Positions 37,424-49,657 of a stretch of 64,000 nucleotides of DNA are shown here, piece after piece (the first letter of the stretch is position 1; each line of letters starts with the position of its first letter). The notes under the pieces were generated by a model. That model was not told the origin of the DNA and did no database searches. It worked only from the letters and a program-made list of their open reading frames with translations. The stretch is from contig CALUTQ010000002.1 of the NCBI GenBank assembly GCA_944323745.1, positions 310,001 to 374,000 on the forward strand, in the 5' to 3' direction. The position numbers and the translations under genes were made by a program. This DNA comes from Candidatus Avelusimicrobium pullarium. Lineage in GTDB: Bacteria > Elusimicrobiota > Elusimicrobia > Elusimicrobiales > Elusimicrobiaceae.

Positions 37424-37903
37424 TTAGCGGCAACTGCCAAGCGAATAACTGTCCAAGCCGTATATATCACACGTGCCGGAGCAAAACAGTTTGCGTCCGC
37501 TACTGCGATATTCCGCACACAGGCTGGAGCTGGAAGAAGCGCAATAGTCCGGCGCCGTCTCCCCCAAATACAGGAAAATCGTGCCGGCTGCGTCCCCGCG
37601 CAAGCGCTTGGCGCAGACCGCATTGGGGTAAGACCCCGGATACAAACCGTACGAAAAATCGTCGCTGTCGGGCACTTTAATGTCCAGCAAATTCATTCCG
37701 AACGCGCCGGAGGTATAGCGGCTCATATTCATACTGTCCATCGTGCGCAGTTTGGCTTCGCTTAAACGTTTCAACACCGTGCTTACTTCAGCCAGGCGCG
37801 ATTTTTCCACCGTCCGTTCATAGATGGGAACAGACATCGTTATCAGGATGGTCATAATCAAAACGGCCACCAAAATTTCCACCAGCGTGAACCCTTTTTT
37901 CAT
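37424..37903 (-). CDS. Type IV pilin (third of trio)
   Basis: 159 aa. MKKG then FTLVEILVAVLIMTILITMS, Glu5 present. A helical extension YERTVEKSRLAEVSTVLKRL is followed by a Cys-rich C-terminus (ALSSSS-type Ser run; LCAEYRSSGRKLFCSGTCDIYG) and ends ..GSC. Last gene of a three-pilin minus-strand set ending at the bidirectional terminator. The KLFCSGTCDIY segment aligns with the C-terminal motif of the neighbour at 37907. Confidence 0.82.
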   Translation of the reverse strand: MKKGFTLVEILVAVLIMTILITMSVPIYERTVEKSRLAEVSTVLKRLSEAKLRTMDSMNMSRYTSGAFGMNLLDIKVPDSDDFSYGLYPGSYPNAVCAKRLRGDAAGTIFLYLGETAPDYCASSSSSLCAEYRSSGRKLFCSGTCDIYGLDSYSLGSCR

Positions 37904-37906
37904 TGT

Positions 37907-38371
37907 TTACTCCACGTTATAAATATCGCAGGCGCCGCTGCCGGCGTCTTGGCAATTATAAAAATTTTGCCCGTCATAACTCATTGTCGTACCCGGATAA
38001 TTCCCTGCAGTTTGGGTAATATTTACGCTGCAGTCATTCTGCAGTGCATACTGAAAACCGGCCCCGGCAATGACCCCGTCGGACACCAAGGTAAAACCGG
38101 TAGGCAGCAATTCCTCGCTGCCGATATCCAAGCGGTTCATACGCCATCTGTTGCCGCTGGAGGCCAGCGGTACGCTGGAATAGTTATCTACCCCCCATTC
38201 CGAAATAAGCCGCTGGCAGGAATCATACATAGATTTAGCCATTACCTGCGCTTTGGTAAAGCGGCTTCTGTCCACCACTTTGCGGTATTGGGGCAAAGCC
38301 ACGGACGTTAAAATGCCGATAATCATTACCACGGCCATCAATTCCATTAACGTAAACCCTCTTTTATTCAT
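37907..38371 (-). CDS. Type IV pilin (second of trio)
   Basis: 154 aa. MNKRG leader and FTLMELMAVVMIIGILTSVA, Glu5 present, then LPQYRKVVDRSRFTKAQVMA. The C-terminus has MSYDGQNFYNCQDAGSGACDIYN, a motif shared in part with the two neighbouring pilins. Three bases separate it from the next gene. It is a close paralogue of 38378 by layout (DGQNF then Cys). Confidence 0.84.
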   Translation of the reverse strand: MNKRGFTLMELMAVVMIIGILTSVALPQYRKVVDRSRFTKAQVMAKSMYDSCQRLISEWGVDNYSSVPLASSGNRWRMNRLDIGSEELLPTGFTLVSDGVIAGAGFQYALQNDCSVNITQTAGNYPGTTMSYDGQNFYNCQDAGSGACDIYNVE

Positions 38372-38377
38372 AAGCCC

Positions 38378-38854
38378 TCACTCATTCCAAGTAGAAGCGC
38401 CCCACACCGTGCACGCTTTGGCCCCTTCTCCGCTCAAACCGGAGGTGGAACATCTAAAATTCTGTCCGTCAAAATAAATTTTTGCGCCTTGGTAATCGCC
38501 TTTAATGGCAGTTGCCGTAATAGAAGGCCCTAAGGTATAAGCAAAATTTTCCGTATTTAAAGTCAGGGCGTTATTGGCAAACGTTCCTTTGGCCATAATG
38601 TCCAATTTACGGAAATTGGCCACGCCGTTTTCTACAGCCACGCCGCAGTTGGCTTTTCCGTTTTCCCAAGCCAGGCGCTCGCAGGAGTCATATACCGCAC
38701 GCATCAGCGTCAGCGCTTCGGCCACGCGCGCACGTTCTACGGAGCGGCGGTACTGCGGCAGCGCGATAGCAGACAAAATGCCTAAAATCATTACAATAAC
38801 CAGCAGTTCTATCAGCGTAAACCCGTCTTTGTGTTTAGCAGAAAAGATGCCCAT
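38378..38854 (-). CDS. Type IV pilin (first of trio)
   Basis: 158 aa. Leader MGIFSAKHKDG and FTLIELLVIVMILGILSAIA with Glu5, then LPQYRRSVERARVAEALTLM. The C-terminus carries IYFDGQNFRCSTSG and ACTVWG. The ATG at 38854 has GGGAG at proper spacing and was preferred over the in-frame ATG at 38875. Together with the following two genes it forms a paralogous array. Confidence 0.83.
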   Translation of the reverse strand: MGIFSAKHKDGFTLIELLVIVMILGILSAIALPQYRRSVERARVAEALTLMRAVYDSCERLAWENGKANCGVAVENGVANFRKLDIMAKGTFANNALTLNTENFAYTLGPSITATAIKGDYQGAKIYFDGQNFRCSTSGLSGEGAKACTVWGASTWNE

Positions 38855-38954
38855 AATTTCTCCCTCTATAAGCATATGCTTTTTTTACATTATTACAATA
38901 TCCATTATAACAAATCCATTTCTCTTGCAAACTGCCCGCCGCAGCCAAATTTGC

Positions 38955-40891: not shown

Positions 40892-43800
40892 TTATTTTTT
40901 GCGTATGCCGATTAAGCCGTAACCTTCCACATCGCCTTTAATGTCTTTAATCAAAAACACGTCCCAGCCGGCAGGGAAATATTTGCCGTGTTCGTCCACC
41001 AAGTCCAAATTAACTTGGAAGGCATTGCCGGACGCGCTCTTTTCCGAGGCGATAAACATATCGCGGCTGTTTTCGGCGCTGCGGATAAACTCGTCAAAGA
41101 ACTCGCGGTTTTCCACCGTTTGGCGGCGGCGGCCTGTGGCGGCCAAGAACACATTGTTGGCGTATTTGACGCGGAATTGCAAGTCCAGCACAACGGCGGG
41201 CAGATCCACATATTCCAAGGTGCGTATAAAGCTTTGCGAGGTTTCGCCCAAGGTTTTGCTGGCTTCGCGCAGTTCAATGCGCAAACTCAAAATGCGCGAC
41301 ATAATGCCTATAAGCTCCTCGGCGCCTTCTTCAAAGCGGGCTTTGGGGGCGCTGGCGGCAAAGCACAGCACACCGGCCACTTTGCCCCCCACATACAACG
41401 GGGCGGCAATCAAAGAGCCGAAATGCTTTTCTTTATGTATGCAGCGCTTGCAATTGGTGTTGGCCAAATCGGAGAAGACGACCACATTGTCGTCGCGCAC
41501 GTCAAACAGACATTCCTCCACCGGAAACACCATATACCGTTCTATATTAAACGGACTGGGCGTTGCATAGACTACGGTCATCTCGTCGGGGTTAGATTCG
41601 CGGAAGCGCATCACGATGCCGACGTCGGACTTAAACACCTTTTTGCCGAAATCTAAAATTTTATCCACCTGTTCGGTAATGGTGCATTTGTTTTCGTTGC
41701 TGATGGCGTACAATTCACGAATGTGCTTTTCGTGCGTATGCCGCTGCGTTACGTCACGCACCCAAATGATGATTTCGTCCTGTTTATCCACCGGCGTGCA
41801 AAGTGCTTCAAAGAAGCGAAGACGGCCGGCATACTCCCAGTCAAACTCAAAAGTAGTATTGATGTGCACGCTGGAAGCTTCTTTAATGGCAAAAACTTCT
41901 TTGGCGGCGGCGTCTTCCGGCCAATACTCCAGCGGCAGCTTGCCCAAGAAGGTCGTGCGGGCCTGCTCCGTAGGCAGATAAGGCAGGTTGGAGGTTACCT
42001 CTAGCACGCGGCCTTCCAAGTCCGTCTTTAAATACAAACCGGGCAGGGACTGGCGCATACTGCGCAGTTCCAACGCTTCGCGCGAGTTATGCGCCAAGCG
42101 TTCCAGCAGGTCCGACAAATCCGTCACCAAAGCCAGCACCACATTGCGCCCCGGAATATCCAGCGACGTAACCGTTACGGAAGTTTCTATCCGGCGGCCG
42201 TCTTTGGCAAACAGGGGCACGCCAAAAGAAGCGCGGCCTTTGTCTTCCAAGGTTTTGGCGGCTTGGGCAAACACTTTTTCTATATCTTCCCGATTTTTAC
42301 CGTCGGGGCTGACAAAAAGGTGTTCAAAAGGCATATTCGTCAGCTCGTCGTGGCTGTAGCCTATCAGCTGCGAAAGGAATTTATTGGCCTGCTGCACCCG
42401 CCCGAAATGGCCGTCCTCATATTCCACCGAGAAAACGGCCCCGTCGGTAGCTTCCAGCAAGGCGTTCAGCTGGGCGGAACGTTCCTGCAAAATGGACATT
42501 ATTTGTTTTTGGAAAGCCATATTGCGGAAGATGAACACATAACTGCCGTTTTGGGCGCGCTGTGCGCTGACCCGCACCGGTGTGTTTTCCAACCCGCTGG
42601 CCAGGCAAATGCTGTATTCGCGGTTTTCCACCGAGCCTTTGGAAGCCAAAATTTTGAGGTCTTCCTTCAGCAGAGGCAGGCTGGCCGAAGCAAAGATTTT
42701 GCTTATTTCCTGCCCTTTCAATTCTTCTCTGTTCAACTGACACAGCGTGCAGAAAAGGTCATTGCAGGAAGAAATTTTAAATTTAGACGAGCAGACCACA
42801 TACGGCTCTGTATCCGGCAGCAGCAAGGCAGCCGGCGGCTGGGGCGCGGCGGGCTGATGTTTTTTATGAATAATTACAGGCACCGGCGGGGGCGGGACGC
42901 TGCCCTTGGGGGTGCGGTCGCGGCGGTCCAGCGTGACCAAATAGTCCGCCTCTACACTGCCGTCTTTGGCATCGCGCCGGTTGAAAGGCTCCAGCGCCAC
43001 GTGCAGTGAGATGGTGCCTTCCCCGTGGATACGGCCCGGGAATTTGGCTTGCGCTTTGGCAAAGTCAAATTCATAATCCATACGGGCGCTTTCGCCGCGG
43101 CGCAGTTTGCGCCGCACTTCCAGCGTCAGGGCCGGACGAATGTACACGTTGCGATAGAAATTGCGGTCCGCATCGGTTAAATGGAACATATCCCGCGCGG
43201 CCTTATTCATTGTGTTAATATAGCCTTTGTGATTTAAAATAAAGGCAGGCAAGAGGCCTTTTTCAAACACATTTTTGAATTTTTCCCGTTCGCCGCGCAC
43301 TTCCCGCAGGGTTTTGTTGATGACGGTTACATCCCGCAGGAATACGATAATAATGCGCCGCCCTAAATACTTGGACGCCATTGCCGCAAATTCCACCTCG
43401 GCGCGCGCCCCCGTTTTTTTGGTCAGCGGCATTTGCACGGGGTTTTGCGAGCCTTCCAGCTCGTTAGCCACGGACTCATATTTTTCTTTGGCAAAAATTT
43501 GATAATCGGCCGGCACAAATTCAAACAAGGACTTGCGCACTATTTCTTCGGCCGTTTCATAACCCAGCACTTTGCAAGCCGCGTGGTTGGCATAGATGAT
43601 TTTTTCGTCTTCCAAAATCAAAATGCCTTCCTTGGAATTTTCCACCAGCAGCGAGTTCTTTTCCCCCGCTTCGCGAATTTGTTTTTCCATCTTCGTTTTG
43701 GCGGTAATATCTTCCGACACGTTAAGCAGGTAGTCCGGCGTGCCGTCGGCTTTATACAACGGCGTTTTGACCGTGTGCATAATTTTTACGCCTTCGGTGG

Positions 43801-46273
43801 GAGTGGAAATTAATTCCTGCGGAATATTCAGCTCTTTGCGGCTTTCAAACACTTTATTGTCCGATTCGCGCAAGAACTCTGCCTGTTCCTTGGTAATATC
43901 GGTGCGGTAATTATTCTTGCCGATTACGTCTTTGGCGGCCACGCCGAAAAGATTTTCGCTCTTTTTATTCCAAACGATATATTCCCCGTCATAGCGTTTG
44001 ACCGACAGGGCGATAGGCAGGTTATCCACCACGTTTTGCAGGAAGTTTTTCGCTTCCCGAATTTCTATTTCCTGCTGTTTCTTTTGGGTGATGTCTTCGG
44101 CGATGGTCAGCACCATAAAAGGTTTGCCTTCCGAATCAAACACCGGCGCTTTGGTTAAATGGAACAAACGCTTTTGGCCGTCCTCGCGGACATATTCTTC
44201 CTCCGGTATGTCCACAATCTTTTTATTTTTAAAGATTTCTTCTTCGCGGGCGTTGTAGGTGGCGTCCGAAGCGCTTTGCAGCTCGGCCTTCGGAAACAGG
44301 CGGTCCGCTTCTTTATTGCAGAAACACAAGCGGTGGTCGGCCCCGTACGCATAAATGGCCATAGGCGCATTGTCCAACACGGCCTGCTGAATATTTTGCG
44401 CTTCGGTCAGCTTGCGGGCCTGCTCGCGCTTGGCGGTAATGTCTTCAGCAATAGAAAGCATCATAAACGGTTTGCCTTCTTTATCGTAGACGGGCACTTT
44501 AATCAAATGCAGTATAATCTTTTTGCCGGTTTTGGTGATATATTCTTCTTCCGGTATATCCACAATTTTGCCGTTGTGGAACATTTCCTGTTCGCGTCTG
44601 CCGTAGAAGTCGTTTTCTTCCTTGTAAATGCTTTCTTTGGGGAACACTTCCAAGGCTTTTTTGTTTACAAAGGACATTACCTGATTGACGCCGCGCGCAT
44701 AAATGGCCAGCGGGGCATTGTCCAAAATGGCCTGCTGGAAGTTTTTGGACTCAATCAGTTTGCGTTCCTGTTCTTTCTTTTCGGTAACGTCTTCCACCAT
44801 CGTAATCACGAACTCGGGGTTGCCTTCCGCGTCCGACACGGGCACTTTTACCATATGCAGCAGGCGGGTATTGCCCTGTTCGGTTTTATACGGTTCCTCT
44901 GCAATATGCAAAGGCTGGCCAGATTCCAGCACCTGGGCCTCGCGGTTGAGGTAAGAGGCCACCTGCTCTTTGGTTTCGTGCGGCAGGCTGCCTTGTTCGT
45001 CAAATTTATGTTCCTCGCTGCCGAAAATAGATTCGCACATTTTATTGCGCAGCAGCATTTTGCCGGACTTTGTTCTGGCGTACAGGCCGATAGGGGCATT
45101 GTCCACAATGGCGGAAAGGAAACTGTTTGCCGTCACGATTTCTTTTTCCTGCTCGCGCCGTTTGGTTACATCTTCCACAATCGTCAGCACCAGCGGTTCC
45201 GGCCCGGCGTGTTTAAGGGGCACTTTAATCATATGAATGATTTTTTCGCTGCCATCGTGCGTGGTGTATATTTCGTCGGGGTAGTCCCGCACGGTGCCTT
45301 CTTCCAAAATTTCCCGTTCGCGCTCATTGTAGCGGCGGATAATATTTGCATCCTGATTGGGGTGCGGCGTATTGGCGTATTTGGGTTCGGCCTCGGCAAA
45401 AACGGTTTGGCTTTGTTTGTTAAAGAATGTCATTACGCCGTCCACCGTGCGGGTATAAATGCCCAGGGGCACGTGGTCCAAAATGGCTTGCAGCAAATTA
45501 CGCGTTTGCAGCAAGTCTTCTTCTTGGCGGCGGCGGGAGGTGATGTCTTCAAACACCGTAAGCACGGTATTTATTTCCCCTTGTGCGTCAAACGTGGGCA
45601 CTTTGGTAACGGACAAAGTAATTTCATTGCCGCGGGCGTTTTTAAAACTCATTTGTTTGCCCATACGGTTTTGCTTTTTCTGTTTGACCTCTTTGTCCAG
45701 CATTCCCAACGCGGCGGAAAGCTGCTGGGGCACCAAGTCCTGCATTTTACGCCCGATGGCCTGCAAAGCCGGCACACCAAACATTTTTTCGGCTTTTTCG
45801 TTCCAAATCAAACAGGCGTCTTTTTTATCCTGCACCGTTACGGCAAACGGATAATGGTCCACCACGGACTGGAAAAATGTTTTTTCCTGCATCAGCTGCC
45901 GGTATTGCGGCGCGGCATCAAAACTAAGCAGCACATAGTGCGTATCGGGCACGCGCGAAGCGCTGACGCTCATATAGACGGCTTCTATGTCTTTGGTGAC
46001 CATTTCTTTAATAAGGTTGGCAGGGCCGTGGCTTTCCAGCAGGCGCGCGATGTCCGCCAGCGGTAAGCCGTATTTGGAAATATTGCTTCCTTTCATTGCC
46101 GCCGGTTCAAAGCCCGACACCGCACCGGTGCGGCTGTTGGCAAAGACGATGTCTCCTTTCTCGTCAATCAAACAAAGGGCGGTGGGTATCAGTTCCAGCA
46201 GGGCGGTAAGTTGTTCCAAAGAATCAGGCGTTTGGCCGTTTTTAGAAAAGAAAGAAAAGATTTTGTTGGTCAT
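40892..46273 (-). CDS. Giant multi-PAS/GAF protein without a recognisable output domain
   Basis: 1,793 aa, soluble (no membrane helix, no signal). I count about 13 PAS-like units: PAS1 ~20-125, PAS2 130-250, PAS3 260-385, PAS4 385-510, PAS5 510-625, PAS6 625-740, PAS7 745-870, PAS8-9 870-1125. A Pro-rich linker follows, then PAS10-12 1165-1530, a GAF domain ~1530-1680 containing CKRCIH, and a final PAS to the C-terminus. Many units end in VEDVT/AEDIT-like motifs (PAC type). PAS3-7 are close repeats; KIVDIPEEEY occurs in both PAS5 and PAS6. No histidine kinase, GGDEF, EAL or response-regulator domain is present, though such arrays normally feed one. It may act as a scaffold or hand signal to a separate partner. 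Confidence 0.85.
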   Translation of the reverse strand: MTNKIFSFFSKNGQTPDSLEQLTALLELIPTALCLIDEKGDIVFANSRTGAVSGFEPAAMKGSNISKYGLPLADIARLLESHGPANLIKEMVTKDIEAVYMSVSASRVPDTHYVLLSFDAAPQYRQLMQEKTFFQSVVDHYPFAVTVQDKKDACLIWNEKAEKMFGVPALQAIGRKMQDLVPQQLSAALGMLDKEVKQKKQNRMGKQMSFKNARGNEITLSVTKVPTFDAQGEINTVLTVFEDITSRRRQEEDLLQTRNLLQAILDHVPLGIYTRTVDGVMTFFNKQSQTVFAEAEPKYANTPHPNQDANIIRRYNEREREILEEGTVRDYPDEIYTTHDGSEKIIHMIKVPLKHAGPEPLVLTIVEDVTKRREQEKEIVTANSFLSAIVDNAPIGLYARTKSGKMLLRNKMCESIFGSEEHKFDEQGSLPHETKEQVASYLNREAQVLESGQPLHIAEEPYKTEQGNTRLLHMVKVPVSDAEGNPEFVITMVEDVTEKKEQERKLIESKNFQQAILDNAPLAIYARGVNQVMSFVNKKALEVFPKESIYKEENDFYGRREQEMFHNGKIVDIPEEEYITKTGKKIILHLIKVPVYDKEGKPFMMLSIAEDITAKREQARKLTEAQNIQQAVLDNAPMAIYAYGADHRLCFCNKEADRLFPKAELQSASDATYNAREEEIFKNKKIVDIPEEEYVREDGQKRLFHLTKAPVFDSEGKPFMVLTIAEDITQKKQQEIEIREAKNFLQNVVDNLPIALSVKRYDGEYIVWNKKSENLFGVAAKDVIGKNNYRTDITKEQAEFLRESDNKVFESRKELNIPQELISTPTEGVKIMHTVKTPLYKADGTPDYLLNVSEDITAKTKMEKQIREAGEKNSLLVENSKEGILILEDEKIIYANHAACKVLGYETAEEIVRKSLFEFVPADYQIFAKEKYESVANELEGSQNPVQMPLTKKTGARAEVEFAAMASKYLGRRIIIVFLRDVTVINKTLREVRGEREKFKNVFEKGLLPAFILNHKGYINTMNKAARDMFHLTDADRNFYRNVYIRPALTLEVRRKLRRGESARMDYEFDFAKAQAKFPGRIHGEGTISLHVALEPFNRRDAKDGSVEADYLVTLDRRDRTPKGSVPPPPVPVIIHKKHQPAAPQPPAALLLPDTEPYVVCSSKFKISSCNDLFCTLCQLNREELKGQEISKIFASASLPLLKEDLKILASKGSVENREYSICLASGLENTPVRVSAQRAQNGSYVFIFRNMAFQKQIMSILQERSAQLNALLEATDGAVFSVEYEDGHFGRVQQANKFLSQLIGYSHDELTNMPFEHLFVSPDGKNREDIEKVFAQAAKTLEDKGRASFGVPLFAKDGRRIETSVTVTSLDIPGRNVVLALVTDLSDLLERLAHNSREALELRSMRQSLPGLYLKTDLEGRVLEVTSNLPYLPTEQARTTFLGKLPLEYWPEDAAAKEVFAIKEASSVHINTTFEFDWEYAGRLRFFEALCTPVDKQDEIIIWVRDVTQRHTHEKHIRELYAISNENKCTITEQVDKILDFGKKVFKSDVGIVMRFRESNPDEMTVVYATPSPFNIERYMVFPVEECLFDVRDDNVVVFSDLANTNCKRCIHKEKHFGSLIAAPLYVGGKVAGVLCFAASAPKARFEEGAEELIGIMSRILSLRIELREASKTLGETSQSFIRTLEYVDLPAVVLDLQFRVKYANNVFLAATGRRRQTVENREFFDEFIRSAENSRDMFIASEKSASGNAFQVNLDLVDEHGKYFPAGWDVFLIKDIKGDVEGYGLIGIRKK

Positions 46274-46392: not shown

Positions 46393-46968
46393 TCAGCGTT
46401 CTTGGCGGCTGCAGGTAAGTTCGGAACCGACAAAGAAAAGCTGGTTGCGTTTATACACGCAGGATACCAGGGTGGACTCTTTTATTCCGTTTTCCGGCTC
46501 CGGCGGCAAATAACAGTCTATGCGTTTACAGTCGTATGTTTCTTTACATTGAGGGAAGGATGACGTCGGAAAATTGACCAAATACCAGGAAAATTCCAAA
46601 TTATAATTCAGCGCCTGCAAAAAGGCTTCGCAAGTGGCTTCCATCGCGGGGCATTGCGGCTGAGGCGTAACCGCTTGCCGTTCTACCCGTTCCTGCAATA
46701 AGGTGTAGCGTTGGCTGTTGACCGGACTGCCCTGCGCCAAATACACGTCAAAGCAGGAGAAATCTTCATCTATTTTACGCGGGCAGGAATATTGCTTTAA
46801 AATGTCATTTCCGGGGCAAGTGTCTTCCACGGCGTCTGCGTCGGTAGTCAGGTAATAGGGTGTTTCCCTGTCCGTCACCACGCGGTAGCGCGGCAGCGCA
46901 GGGGCCAGCCCCGCCCCGGCGCAAGCGCCCAAAAACAAACATAAAATACAAACAGAAAACAGTTTCAT
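46393..46968 (-). CDS. Cys-rich lipoprotein, unknown function
   Basis: 191 aa from the ATG at 46968. Signal MKLFSVCILCLFLGACAG has lipobox LGAC. The body carries about a dozen Cys, including DTCPGNDILKQYSCPRK, FSCFDVY, PQCPAMEATC and KETYDCKRIDC. Several could pair in the periplasm. No family recognised. It lies between the multi-PAS gene and nadB, on the same strand as both. Ribosome site GGGGG. The open frame extends upstream but without a good site. Confidence 0.65.
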   Translation of the reverse strand: MKLFSVCILCLFLGACAGAGLAPALPRYRVVTDRETPYYLTTDADAVEDTCPGNDILKQYSCPRKIDEDFSCFDVYLAQGSPVNSQRYTLLQERVERQAVTPQPQCPAMEATCEAFLQALNYNLEFSWYLVNFPTSSFPQCKETYDCKRIDCYLPPEPENGIKESTLVSCVYKRNQLFFVGSELTCSRQER

Positions 46969-46996
46969 TATGCCCCCGTTTTTGTCAGCATAGCAG

Positions 46997-47031
46997 AAGA
47001 AAAGCCCCTTCGTCAAGAAAACAAAGGGGCT
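46997..47031 (-). terminator. Terminator after nadB
   Basis: On the minus strand AGCCCCTT/AAGGGGCT stem, 13-nt loop, followed by TTTTCTTCT. It lies between nadB and the lipoprotein gene. Confidence 0.75.
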
Positions 47032-49080: not shown

Positions 49081-49566
49081 TTAGCAACTTGAGGAAGAAG
49101 ACGAATAGCCCATTAGTTGGCACATTTCCTGTCCTTCCGTATCAAACGCCAAGCAACGGTCCGCAGGCGCGGCGCCTGTTCGCGTAGCTTCCTGATACAC
49201 GCAAATGCCGACGTGGCCGTCCCTGTCCAAGGCTCTTACATAAGAAGCATTTGTTACATATAAGGTAAACGTGCCCACATCGCACGAAGAACCGGTGCAA
49301 GTAACACCCGAAGAATTTTTAATTTCCAAGGGCAGCACCCCCAGCGTAACAGGCACACTGACGCTGTCTATACCCACGTGGTCATAATAATACGCATCGC
49401 GCGCCGCCGCCACCTGATGGGCTGTATTTTTAGCATCGGTAAAACGGGTTCTGTCCAGCGAACGGTTATAAGAACCGATGGCAATGCCTGCCAAAATGCC
49501 TATAATAATGACCACTGCCATCAGCTCGGCCAGCGTAAAACCGCGGCGATTACAAAAATAAGACAT
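49081..49566 (-). CDS. Type IV pilin
   Basis: 161 aa. Leader MSYFCNRRG and FTLAELMAVVIIIGILAGIA with Glu5. The mature domain has TCTGSSCDVG and DRCLAFDTEGQEMCQLMG, ending in a Ser6-Cys tail. The Cys..Cys C-terminal loop is like others in this window. ATG at 49566 has AAAGGAGAAAT upstream. It stands alone, divergent from the nag operon. Confidence 0.82.
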   Translation of the reverse strand: MSYFCNRRGFTLAELMAVVIIIGILAGIAIGSYNRSLDRTRFTDAKNTAHQVAAARDAYYYDHVGIDSVSVPVTLGVLPLEIKNSSGVTCTGSSCDVGTFTLYVTNASYVRALDRDGHVGICVYQEATRTGAAPADRCLAFDTEGQEMCQLMGYSSSSSSC

Positions 49567-49657
49567 AAATTTCTCCTTTTGCAAAATATTTCTTTTAGTA
49601 TATAGGTTTTTGCGGGCAATTTCAAATCTTTCCGCGGGGCTTTATTTTGCCGTACAA

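What the first reader, a model, noticed from the sequence alone, without database searches (positions are those of the whole stretch)
40892..46273. 1,793-aa soluble PAS/GAF array with no output domain
About 13 PAS-like units and one GAF are strung together with no kinase, GGDEF, EAL, HPt or receiver domain and no membrane helix. PAS3-7 are near-repeats with shared motifs (KIVDIPEEEY in two), which suggests internal duplication. The GAF has CKRCIH, a possible metal or redox site. Arrays of this size normally end in an effector. This one might signal through a separate partner, act as a scaffold, or sense several ligands in series.
Basis: partly seen in the sequence, partly recalled or inferred. 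Interest (0 to 1): 0.65.

Follow-up and report, generated by a model that had tools for sequence, protein, structure and literature searches.

The report
Giant sensor protein missing its output
Gut bacteria of one family all carry a very large protein made only of sensing domains, and in the same lineage one signalling kinase has lost its own sensing part, which suggests (but does not prove) that the big protein now does the sensing for that kinase.

Summary
Window 40892-46273, minus strand, is an intact 1,793-aa gene encoding 13 PAS domains and one GAF, with no output domain; the C-terminal half, modelled by AlphaFold2, ends within its last PAS beta-strand. It is not a truncation: clear orthologues lie in 86 of 90 genomes of the family (Elusimicrobiaceae, including one whose size matches Elusimicrobium minutum). 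None of the 44 read has a kinase, cyclase or receiver. The number of N-terminal near-repeat PAS units varies (total about 13 here to 8), while the C-terminal half is fixed. The GAF has an almost invariant C-x19-C-x2-C-x-H set, best read as a metal or Fe-S site. All sensory-box hits in this genome lie in this one gene.

New: a candidate partner. Array-bearing genera encode a sensorless histidine-kinase core of about 250 aa. Its syntenic orthologues in the sister family and in the two array-lacking genera of the same family are 520-539-aa GAF-PAS-kinases. Best explanation: the array senses in trans for a separate transmitter, most likely this kinase. The partner is inferred from one evolutionary transition; genome G105 has an array but no such kinase, and no fused form was found. 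New variant of a known kind (compare Campylobacter CetA/CetB).

The parts
40892..46273 (-). whole gene, 1,793-aa PAS/GAF array without output domain
46241..46273 (-). residues 1-11, MTNKIFSFFSK, short N-terminal motif conserved in genera g1 and g11; replaced by other amphipathic-looking sequence in g14 and g15
   Evidence: hydrophobic moment only weakly above shuffles in g1 (p 0.03-0.3), clearer in g14 (p about 0.00-0.02 in most)
45896..46210 (-). PAS1 (residues ~22-126)
45515..45895 (-). PAS2 (~127-253), first unit of the near-repeat block
45137..45514 (-). PAS3 (~254-379), near-repeat
44762..45136 (-). PAS4 (~380-504), near-repeat
44408..44761 (-). PAS5 (~505-622), near-repeat with KIVDIPEEEY; 55% identical to PAS6
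44057..44407 (-). PAS6 (~623-739), near-repeat with KIVDIPEEEY; the unit absent from about 80% of the 44 aligned orthologues
43676..44056 (-). PAS7 (~740-866), most conserved unit of the family, present even in the shortest orthologue
43310..43666 (-). PAS8 (~870-988)
42920..43306 (-). PAS9 (~990-1118)
   Evidence: weak HMM match; PAS-type strands and helices in AlphaFold2 model
42818..42919 (-). proline-rich linker (~1119-1152), predicted disordered (pLDDT < 50)
42479..42817 (-). PAS10 (~1153-1265)
42110..42448 (-). PAS11 (~1276-1388)
41729..42070 (-). PAS12 (~1402-1515)
   Evidence: AlphaFold2 model; weak HMM matches in some orthologues
41270..41686 (-). GAF domain (~1530-1668)
   Evidence: Pfam GAF 32 bits, over the cut-off of 22.4; model
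41435..41512 (-). stretch holding the four putative metal / Fe-S ligands C1588, C1608, C1611, H1613
   Evidence: conserved in 43, 43, 40 and 40 of 44 orthologues; His replaced by Cys in genus g11; all four absent in G105
40895..41260 (-). PAS13 (~1672-1793); the protein ends at its last strand, with no linker helix after it
46393..47016 (-). exported Cys-rich protein, neighbour conserved within the genus; link to the array unproven
   Evidence: found at the array locus in 30 of 34 same-genus loci, in two arrangements; not in g11, g14 or g15 loci

Best explanation
The gene encodes a cytoplasmic sensor array that signals in trans. The PAS domains and a metal- or Fe-S-binding GAF respond to internal signals (redox state or small ligands, identity unknown) and change the array's shape or dimer contacts; this is read by a separate transmitter. 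The most likely transmitter is a histidine-kinase core of about 250 aa in the same genome (G000:C2:669613-670374, L074:3614-4378 +), which in this lineage has lost the GAF-PAS sensor that its orthologues still carry. Shown: intact gene, absence of output domain, conservation, repeat variation, conserved ligand set, loss of the kinase's sensor only in the lineage that has the array. Inferred: binding between the two, metal content, ligands, direction of control.
For: Array conserved as an output-less protein in 86/90 family genomes. All TIGR00229 PAS hits of the genome are in this one gene, while its six histidine kinases have no PAS above Pfam cut-off. The kinase core is HisKA+HATPase only, H-box His at residue 25-26 of 254, with intact catalytic motifs. 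Its orthologues in f2 genomes and in G085/G086 (same family, no array) are 520-539 aa with GAF and a PAS-like region; synteny with an upstream ~290-aa exported protein gene is kept; no full-length form was listed in any array-bearing genome. Reciprocal control: two other kinases (RR-HK and dCache-HK) kept their full architecture between the same genomes. Trees place all array-bearing genera tested in one clade (100% bootstrap) and all kinase cores in one clade (100%). The array ends in GAF-PAS, the same order as the lost part of the kinase.
Against: The co-occurrence rests on a single transition on the tree, in a lineage that also lost most other kinases, so it may be coincidence. G105 (genus g15, 92% complete) has an array but no such kinase core was found. 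The two genes are about 313 kb apart. Collinearity of GAF-PAS with the lost kinase part is weak and generic (19% identity, hhalign E 8e-6). No fused (Rosetta) form turned up in 59 sister-family genomes. Other PAS-less transmitters are present.
Confidence: 0.45

Rival explanations
1. The array does signal in trans, but to another partner: the RR-HisKA-HATPase kinase, the short membrane kinase, a single-domain receiver, or several of them at once as a hub.
For: The genome has at least three other transmitters without a cytoplasmic PAS sensor and several lone receivers. G105 keeps the array without the sensorless core, but keeps the RR-HK, dCache-HK and 312-aa kinases.
Against: RR-HK and dCache-HK have the same architecture in genomes without the array, so nothing in them points to a new input. 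No clear orthologue of the membrane kinase was identified among the array-lacking-genus kinases sampled, so it could not be tested.
Confidence: 0.3
2. The array is mainly a scaffold or ligand store: PAS domains hold proteins or cofactors together (possibly at the membrane through the N-terminal motif) without acting on a phosphorelay.
For: No output domain; great length; unit number drifts between species; proline-rich disordered hinge; conserved N-terminal motif.
Against: The conserved ligand set of the GAF and the very strong conservation of PAS7 suggest sensing or binding of something specific. Does not account for the loss of the kinase's sensor.
Confidence: 0.17
3. The array works with the exported Cys-rich protein encoded next to it, for example by controlling its production or envelope state.
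For: Within the genus the pair stays together in 30 of 34 loci despite a change of orientation and of outer neighbours.
Against: The neighbour is absent from the array locus in genera g11, g14 and g15 and in 4 loci of the genus; it is predicted exported while the array is predicted cytoplasmic; the array has no DNA-binding domain.
Confidence: 0.06
4. The gene is a decaying remnant of a large sensor kinase that lost its kinase by truncation.
For: It ends directly after a PAS core without a linker helix.
Against: Intact and co-terminal or nearly so in 44 aligned orthologues from four genera, with invariant residues up to the C-terminus; unit number has grown rather than decayed in the window clade.
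Confidence: 0.02

Closest known systems
CetA/CetB/CetC energy-taxis receptor of Campylobacter jejuni
   Same: Proteins consisting only of PAS (CetB, CetC: single PAS domains, PMC4519771) act in trans on a separate transducer (CetA; the bipartite CetA/CetB arrangement is from general knowledge).
   Different: CetB is one PAS and CetA is a membrane methyl-accepting protein; here there are 13 PAS + GAF in one chain, and the proposed transmitter is a soluble histidine-kinase core encoded elsewhere.
Multi-PAS sensor histidine kinases (sensory-box kinases, for example FixL-like)
   Same: Same PAS S-box units and linkers; architecture of the sensory half.
   Different: HisKA and HATPase_c absent (tested).
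Split histidine kinases CheA3/CheA4 (Rhodobacter sphaeroides)
   Same: One histidine-kinase function divided between two proteins (PMC3591291).
   Different: There ATP binding and phosphotransfer are split; here sensor and complete transmitter would be split.
PpsR and NifL
   Same: Multi-PAS proteins that act through PAS-mediated protein contacts; PpsR and a NifL-NifA complex are among the structural neighbours of the C-terminal half (PMC3949515 for PpsR).
   Different: PpsR ends in a DNA-binding motif and NifL in a kinase-like part; this protein ends in PAS.

Membership tests
PAS S-box sensor proteins (TIGR00229 / Pfam PAS clan) | S-box/PAS units above the curated cut-off | tested here: met
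   TIGR00229 347.6 bits against cut-off 22.9, 10 stretches; several Pfam PAS models over cut-off
Sensor histidine kinase | HisKA (or HisKA_3) and HATPase_c | tested here: not met
   no match in the window protein; orthologues end at the same place; none in shortest orthologue G105
Diguanylate cyclase / phosphodiesterase sensor | GGDEF or EAL domain | tested here: not met
   no GGDEF or EAL match; the Diguanyl_cycl_sensor hit is a PAS-type match below cut-off
Bipartite receptor of CetA/CetB type | PAS-only protein and sensorless transducer encoded in the same genome | tested here: met
   array and 254-aa HisKA-HATPase protein
Bipartite receptor of CetA/CetB type | physical and functional interaction of the two proteins | not testable with these tools
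   needs biochemistry; no genetic linkage (about 313 kb apart) and no fusion found
Split histidine kinase (CheA3/CheA4 type) | ATP-binding and phosphotransfer domains on different proteins | tested here: not met
   the kinase core holds both HisKA and HATPase_c
Metal / Fe-S-binding GAF | conserved set of Cys/His ligands | tested here: met
   C1588, C1608, C1611, H1613 in 43/43/40/40 of 44; Cys replaces His in g11; all lost together in G105
Metal / Fe-S-binding GAF | bound metal or cluster | not testable with these tools
   needs purified protein

The most novel reading that the evidence does not exclude
At the origin of the host-associated Elusimicrobiaceae, cytoplasmic sensing was moved out of the histidine kinases and concentrated in one giant output-less PAS/GAF hub, which controls a kinase stripped of its sensor (and possibly other transmitters) in trans; the hub then grew by adding PAS units.
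Probability: 0.3. Interest if true: 0.75.

Novelty: new variant of a known kind. Interest (0 to 1): 0.52.

Why it matters
If right, it shows cytoplasmic sensing in a small gut bacterium centralised in a single detachable module, with a kinase reduced to its transmitter, and it offers a natural series (about 8 to 13 PAS units on a fixed C-terminal half) for asking what extra PAS domains add. It also names a testable partner and a conserved Cys/His site, in a family with at least one cultured species, Elusimicrobium minutum.

Tried and rejected
Frameshift or hidden 3' output domain: rejected (intact frame; orthologues end alike; AlphaFold2 shows nothing after PAS13). Kinase with a 549-aa frame in some genomes as a retained sensor: rejected, it is the upstream exported-protein gene (in frame) read together with a 250-aa kinase, sometimes across a stop. 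Direct descent of the array's GAF-PAS tail from the lost kinase sensor: not supported beyond generic GAF-PAS similarity, and the Cys/His set is not in the kinase GAF. Fused array-kinase in sister-family genomes: none found. Four-helix-bundle protein encoded after the kinase core: AlphaFold2 confident (pTM 0.83) but no significant structural match and no Pfam family above cut-off. Literature searches for this protein or for sensory genes of these bacteria gave nothing specific in the held library. PDB sequence search with the GAF-PAS profile gave only distant PAS and phytochrome matches. A mirror-tree test of array against kinase was not run: too few control genes in the same genomes.

Full report
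WHAT IS THERE. The gene runs from 46273 to 40892 on the minus strand, 1,793 codons, no interruption. Pfam sees PAS families and one GAF only; NCBIfam's S-box model scores 347.6 bits with 10 separate stretches, while every kinase 'equivalog' that it hits scores far below its cut-off. With a PAS model built from the protein's own units and the AlphaFold2 model of residues 990-1793 (mean pLDDT 85, 38 orthologues), the order is PAS1-PAS9, a disordered proline-rich linker at about 1120-1151, PAS10-PAS12, GAF, PAS13. The last beta-strand ends three residues before the stop. pTM is only 0.40, so the relative placement of domains is not predicted. Structural neighbours are other PAS/GAF proteins: DosP, PpsR, bacteriophytochromes, FixL, NifL. 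The most hydrophobic stretch is a GAF hairpin, not a membrane helix.

IT IS A CONSERVED GENE, NOT A FRAGMENT. The genome (1.6 Mb) belongs to a genus whose named relative in the hits is Candidatus Avelusimicrobium excrementipullorum. A search of 90 genomes of the family gives clear orthologues in 86; two lack it but are only 64-66% complete (G059, G097), and two (G085, G086, genera g12 and g13, 2.2-2.3 Mb) have only generic PAS hits. G083 has one contig of 1,643,562 bases, which fits Elusimicrobium minutum Pei191 (recalled, not tested). In 16 sister-family genomes there are only generic PAS hits. None of the 44 orthologues read has an output domain.

THE NUMBER OF UNITS VARIES, AT THE N-TERMINAL SIDE. 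The strong near-repeat block (PAS2-PAS7 here) has six units in the window clade, five in most of the genus, four in other members and in g11, three or four in g14 and one in G105, where the protein is 1,196 aa. In the alignment, residues of about 601-715 are missing from about 80% of orthologues, while everything from PAS7 to the end is nearly gap-free apart from the linker. PAS5 and PAS6 are 55% identical, the other pairs of PAS3-PAS6 34-39%. So the array grew by tandem duplication and the C-terminal half is the fixed part.

A CONSERVED LIGAND SET IN THE GAF. C1588, C1608, C1611 and H1613 are kept in 43, 43, 40 and 40 of 44 sequences. In the three g11 sequences the His is a Cys; in G105 all four are gone at once. 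Joint loss and His/Cys exchange are what one expects of metal or iron-sulphur ligands; binding itself is untested. PAS7 is the most conserved unit (majority-residue frequency about 0.7-0.8 against 0.4-0.6 elsewhere).

ALL THE S-BOX HITS ARE IN ONE GENE. Every TIGR00229 match in the genome (11 at E up to 0.1) is in this reading frame. The genome has eight HATPase matches: six histidine kinases plus proteins with the frame size and context of GyrB and MutL. The kinases are RR-HisKA-HATPase, two dCache-HK, a short membrane kinase, a HisKA_3 kinase with a sub-threshold PAS_4 match, and a bare HisKA-HATPase of 254 aa. Sister-family genomes have 21-64 HATPase matches and 6-47 PAS_9 matches each.

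A KINASE THAT LOST ITS SENSOR. The bare kinase (L074:3614-4378; G000:C2:669613-670374) lies after a ~290-aa exported protein gene. In sister-family genomes, and in G085 and G086, the gene at the same place after the same kind of neighbour is a 520-539-aa GAF - PAS-like - HisKA - HATPase protein (the GAF is a Pfam match; the PAS-like part is my reading of the sequence). One search covered all 90 family genomes with the full-length form: only G085 and G086 match over the whole length (E 1e-155 and 5e-143); the best matches of nearly all others cover only the kinase, from about residue 280 on, in frames of about 250-285 aa. Frames of about 549 aa in some genomes are the neighbouring gene in the same frame. 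Own kinase and the G085/G086 forms are each other's best matches among the kinases sampled. As a control, RR-HK and dCache-HK kept their architecture between the same genomes. In array-bearing genomes the kinase gene is followed by a gene for a predicted four-helix bundle (pTM 0.83, no significant structural match) and an AI-2E-type transporter gene; neither follows it in G085 or G086.

EVOLUTION. A tree of three concatenated signalling proteins groups g1, g11 and g15 apart from g12, g13 and f2 with 100% bootstrap; kinase cores of g1, g11 and g14 form one clade with 100%. So gain of the array and loss of the kinase's sensor fall on the same part of the tree, but as one event each. G105 has the shortest array, lacks the Cys/His set and shows no kinase core among its seven HATPase matches; the genome is 92% complete, so the absence may or may not be real. 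It is either joint loss (which would fit partnership) or an array that works without this kinase (which would not).

MECHANISM. A PAS sensor in a kinase normally drives the kinase through the helix that joins them (established knowledge). Here nothing follows PAS13, so the output must pass through contacts between proteins. The simplest partner is a transmitter lacking a sensor, and the genome has one that became sensorless in just this lineage. Precedent: PAS-only CetB and CetC of Campylobacter (PMC4519771), which act on a separate transducer (CetA, general knowledge). I put about 0.9 on 'works in trans or as a scaffold, not through its own output', and 0.45 on this kinase as main partner.

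NEIGHBOURS. FKBP-type (downstream, convergent) and the nadB-like gene are housekeeping by appearance. The exported Cys-rich protein upstream (46393-47016) stays with the array in 30 of 34 loci of the genus, in tandem in the window clade and divergent with other outer neighbours elsewhere, but not in the other genera. It may be linked in function within the genus; it cannot be the general partner.

LIMITS. Genomes are mostly MAGs. The first look of the genome search may miss remote homologues. No complex prediction or experiment was possible.

Noticed in passing
46393-47016 (-): Exported Cys-rich protein without Pfam family, kept next to the array in 30 of 34 same-genus loci despite a change of orientation and of outer neighbours; absent from the locus in other genera.
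   Followed up: partly
L074:4375-4884 (+), own genome C2: Predicted four-helix-bundle protein (165-170 aa) whose start overlaps the stop of the sensorless kinase; follows the kinase in array-bearing genera g1, g11 and g14, not in G085 or G086; no significant structural match.
   Followed up: partly
44159-46066 (+): 635-aa open frame antisense to the array; no sign that it is a gene.
   Followed up: no
37424-37903, 37907-38371, 38378-38875, 49081-49584 (all -): Several prepilin-like proteins with GFTL(I/V/M/A)E N-termini around the array; more such genes lie beside other signalling genes of the genome (L073, L078, L079, L081).
   Followed up: no
L078:3251-4177 (+), own genome C2: Receiver-GGDEF protein, the only diguanylate-cyclase-like protein met here, with HVGGDDF in place of GGDEF (non-consensus).
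   Followed up: no
L097 (G022): Array orthologue interrupted by one TAA within the GAF region; may be a sequencing error or a real pseudogene in that genome.
   Followed up: no
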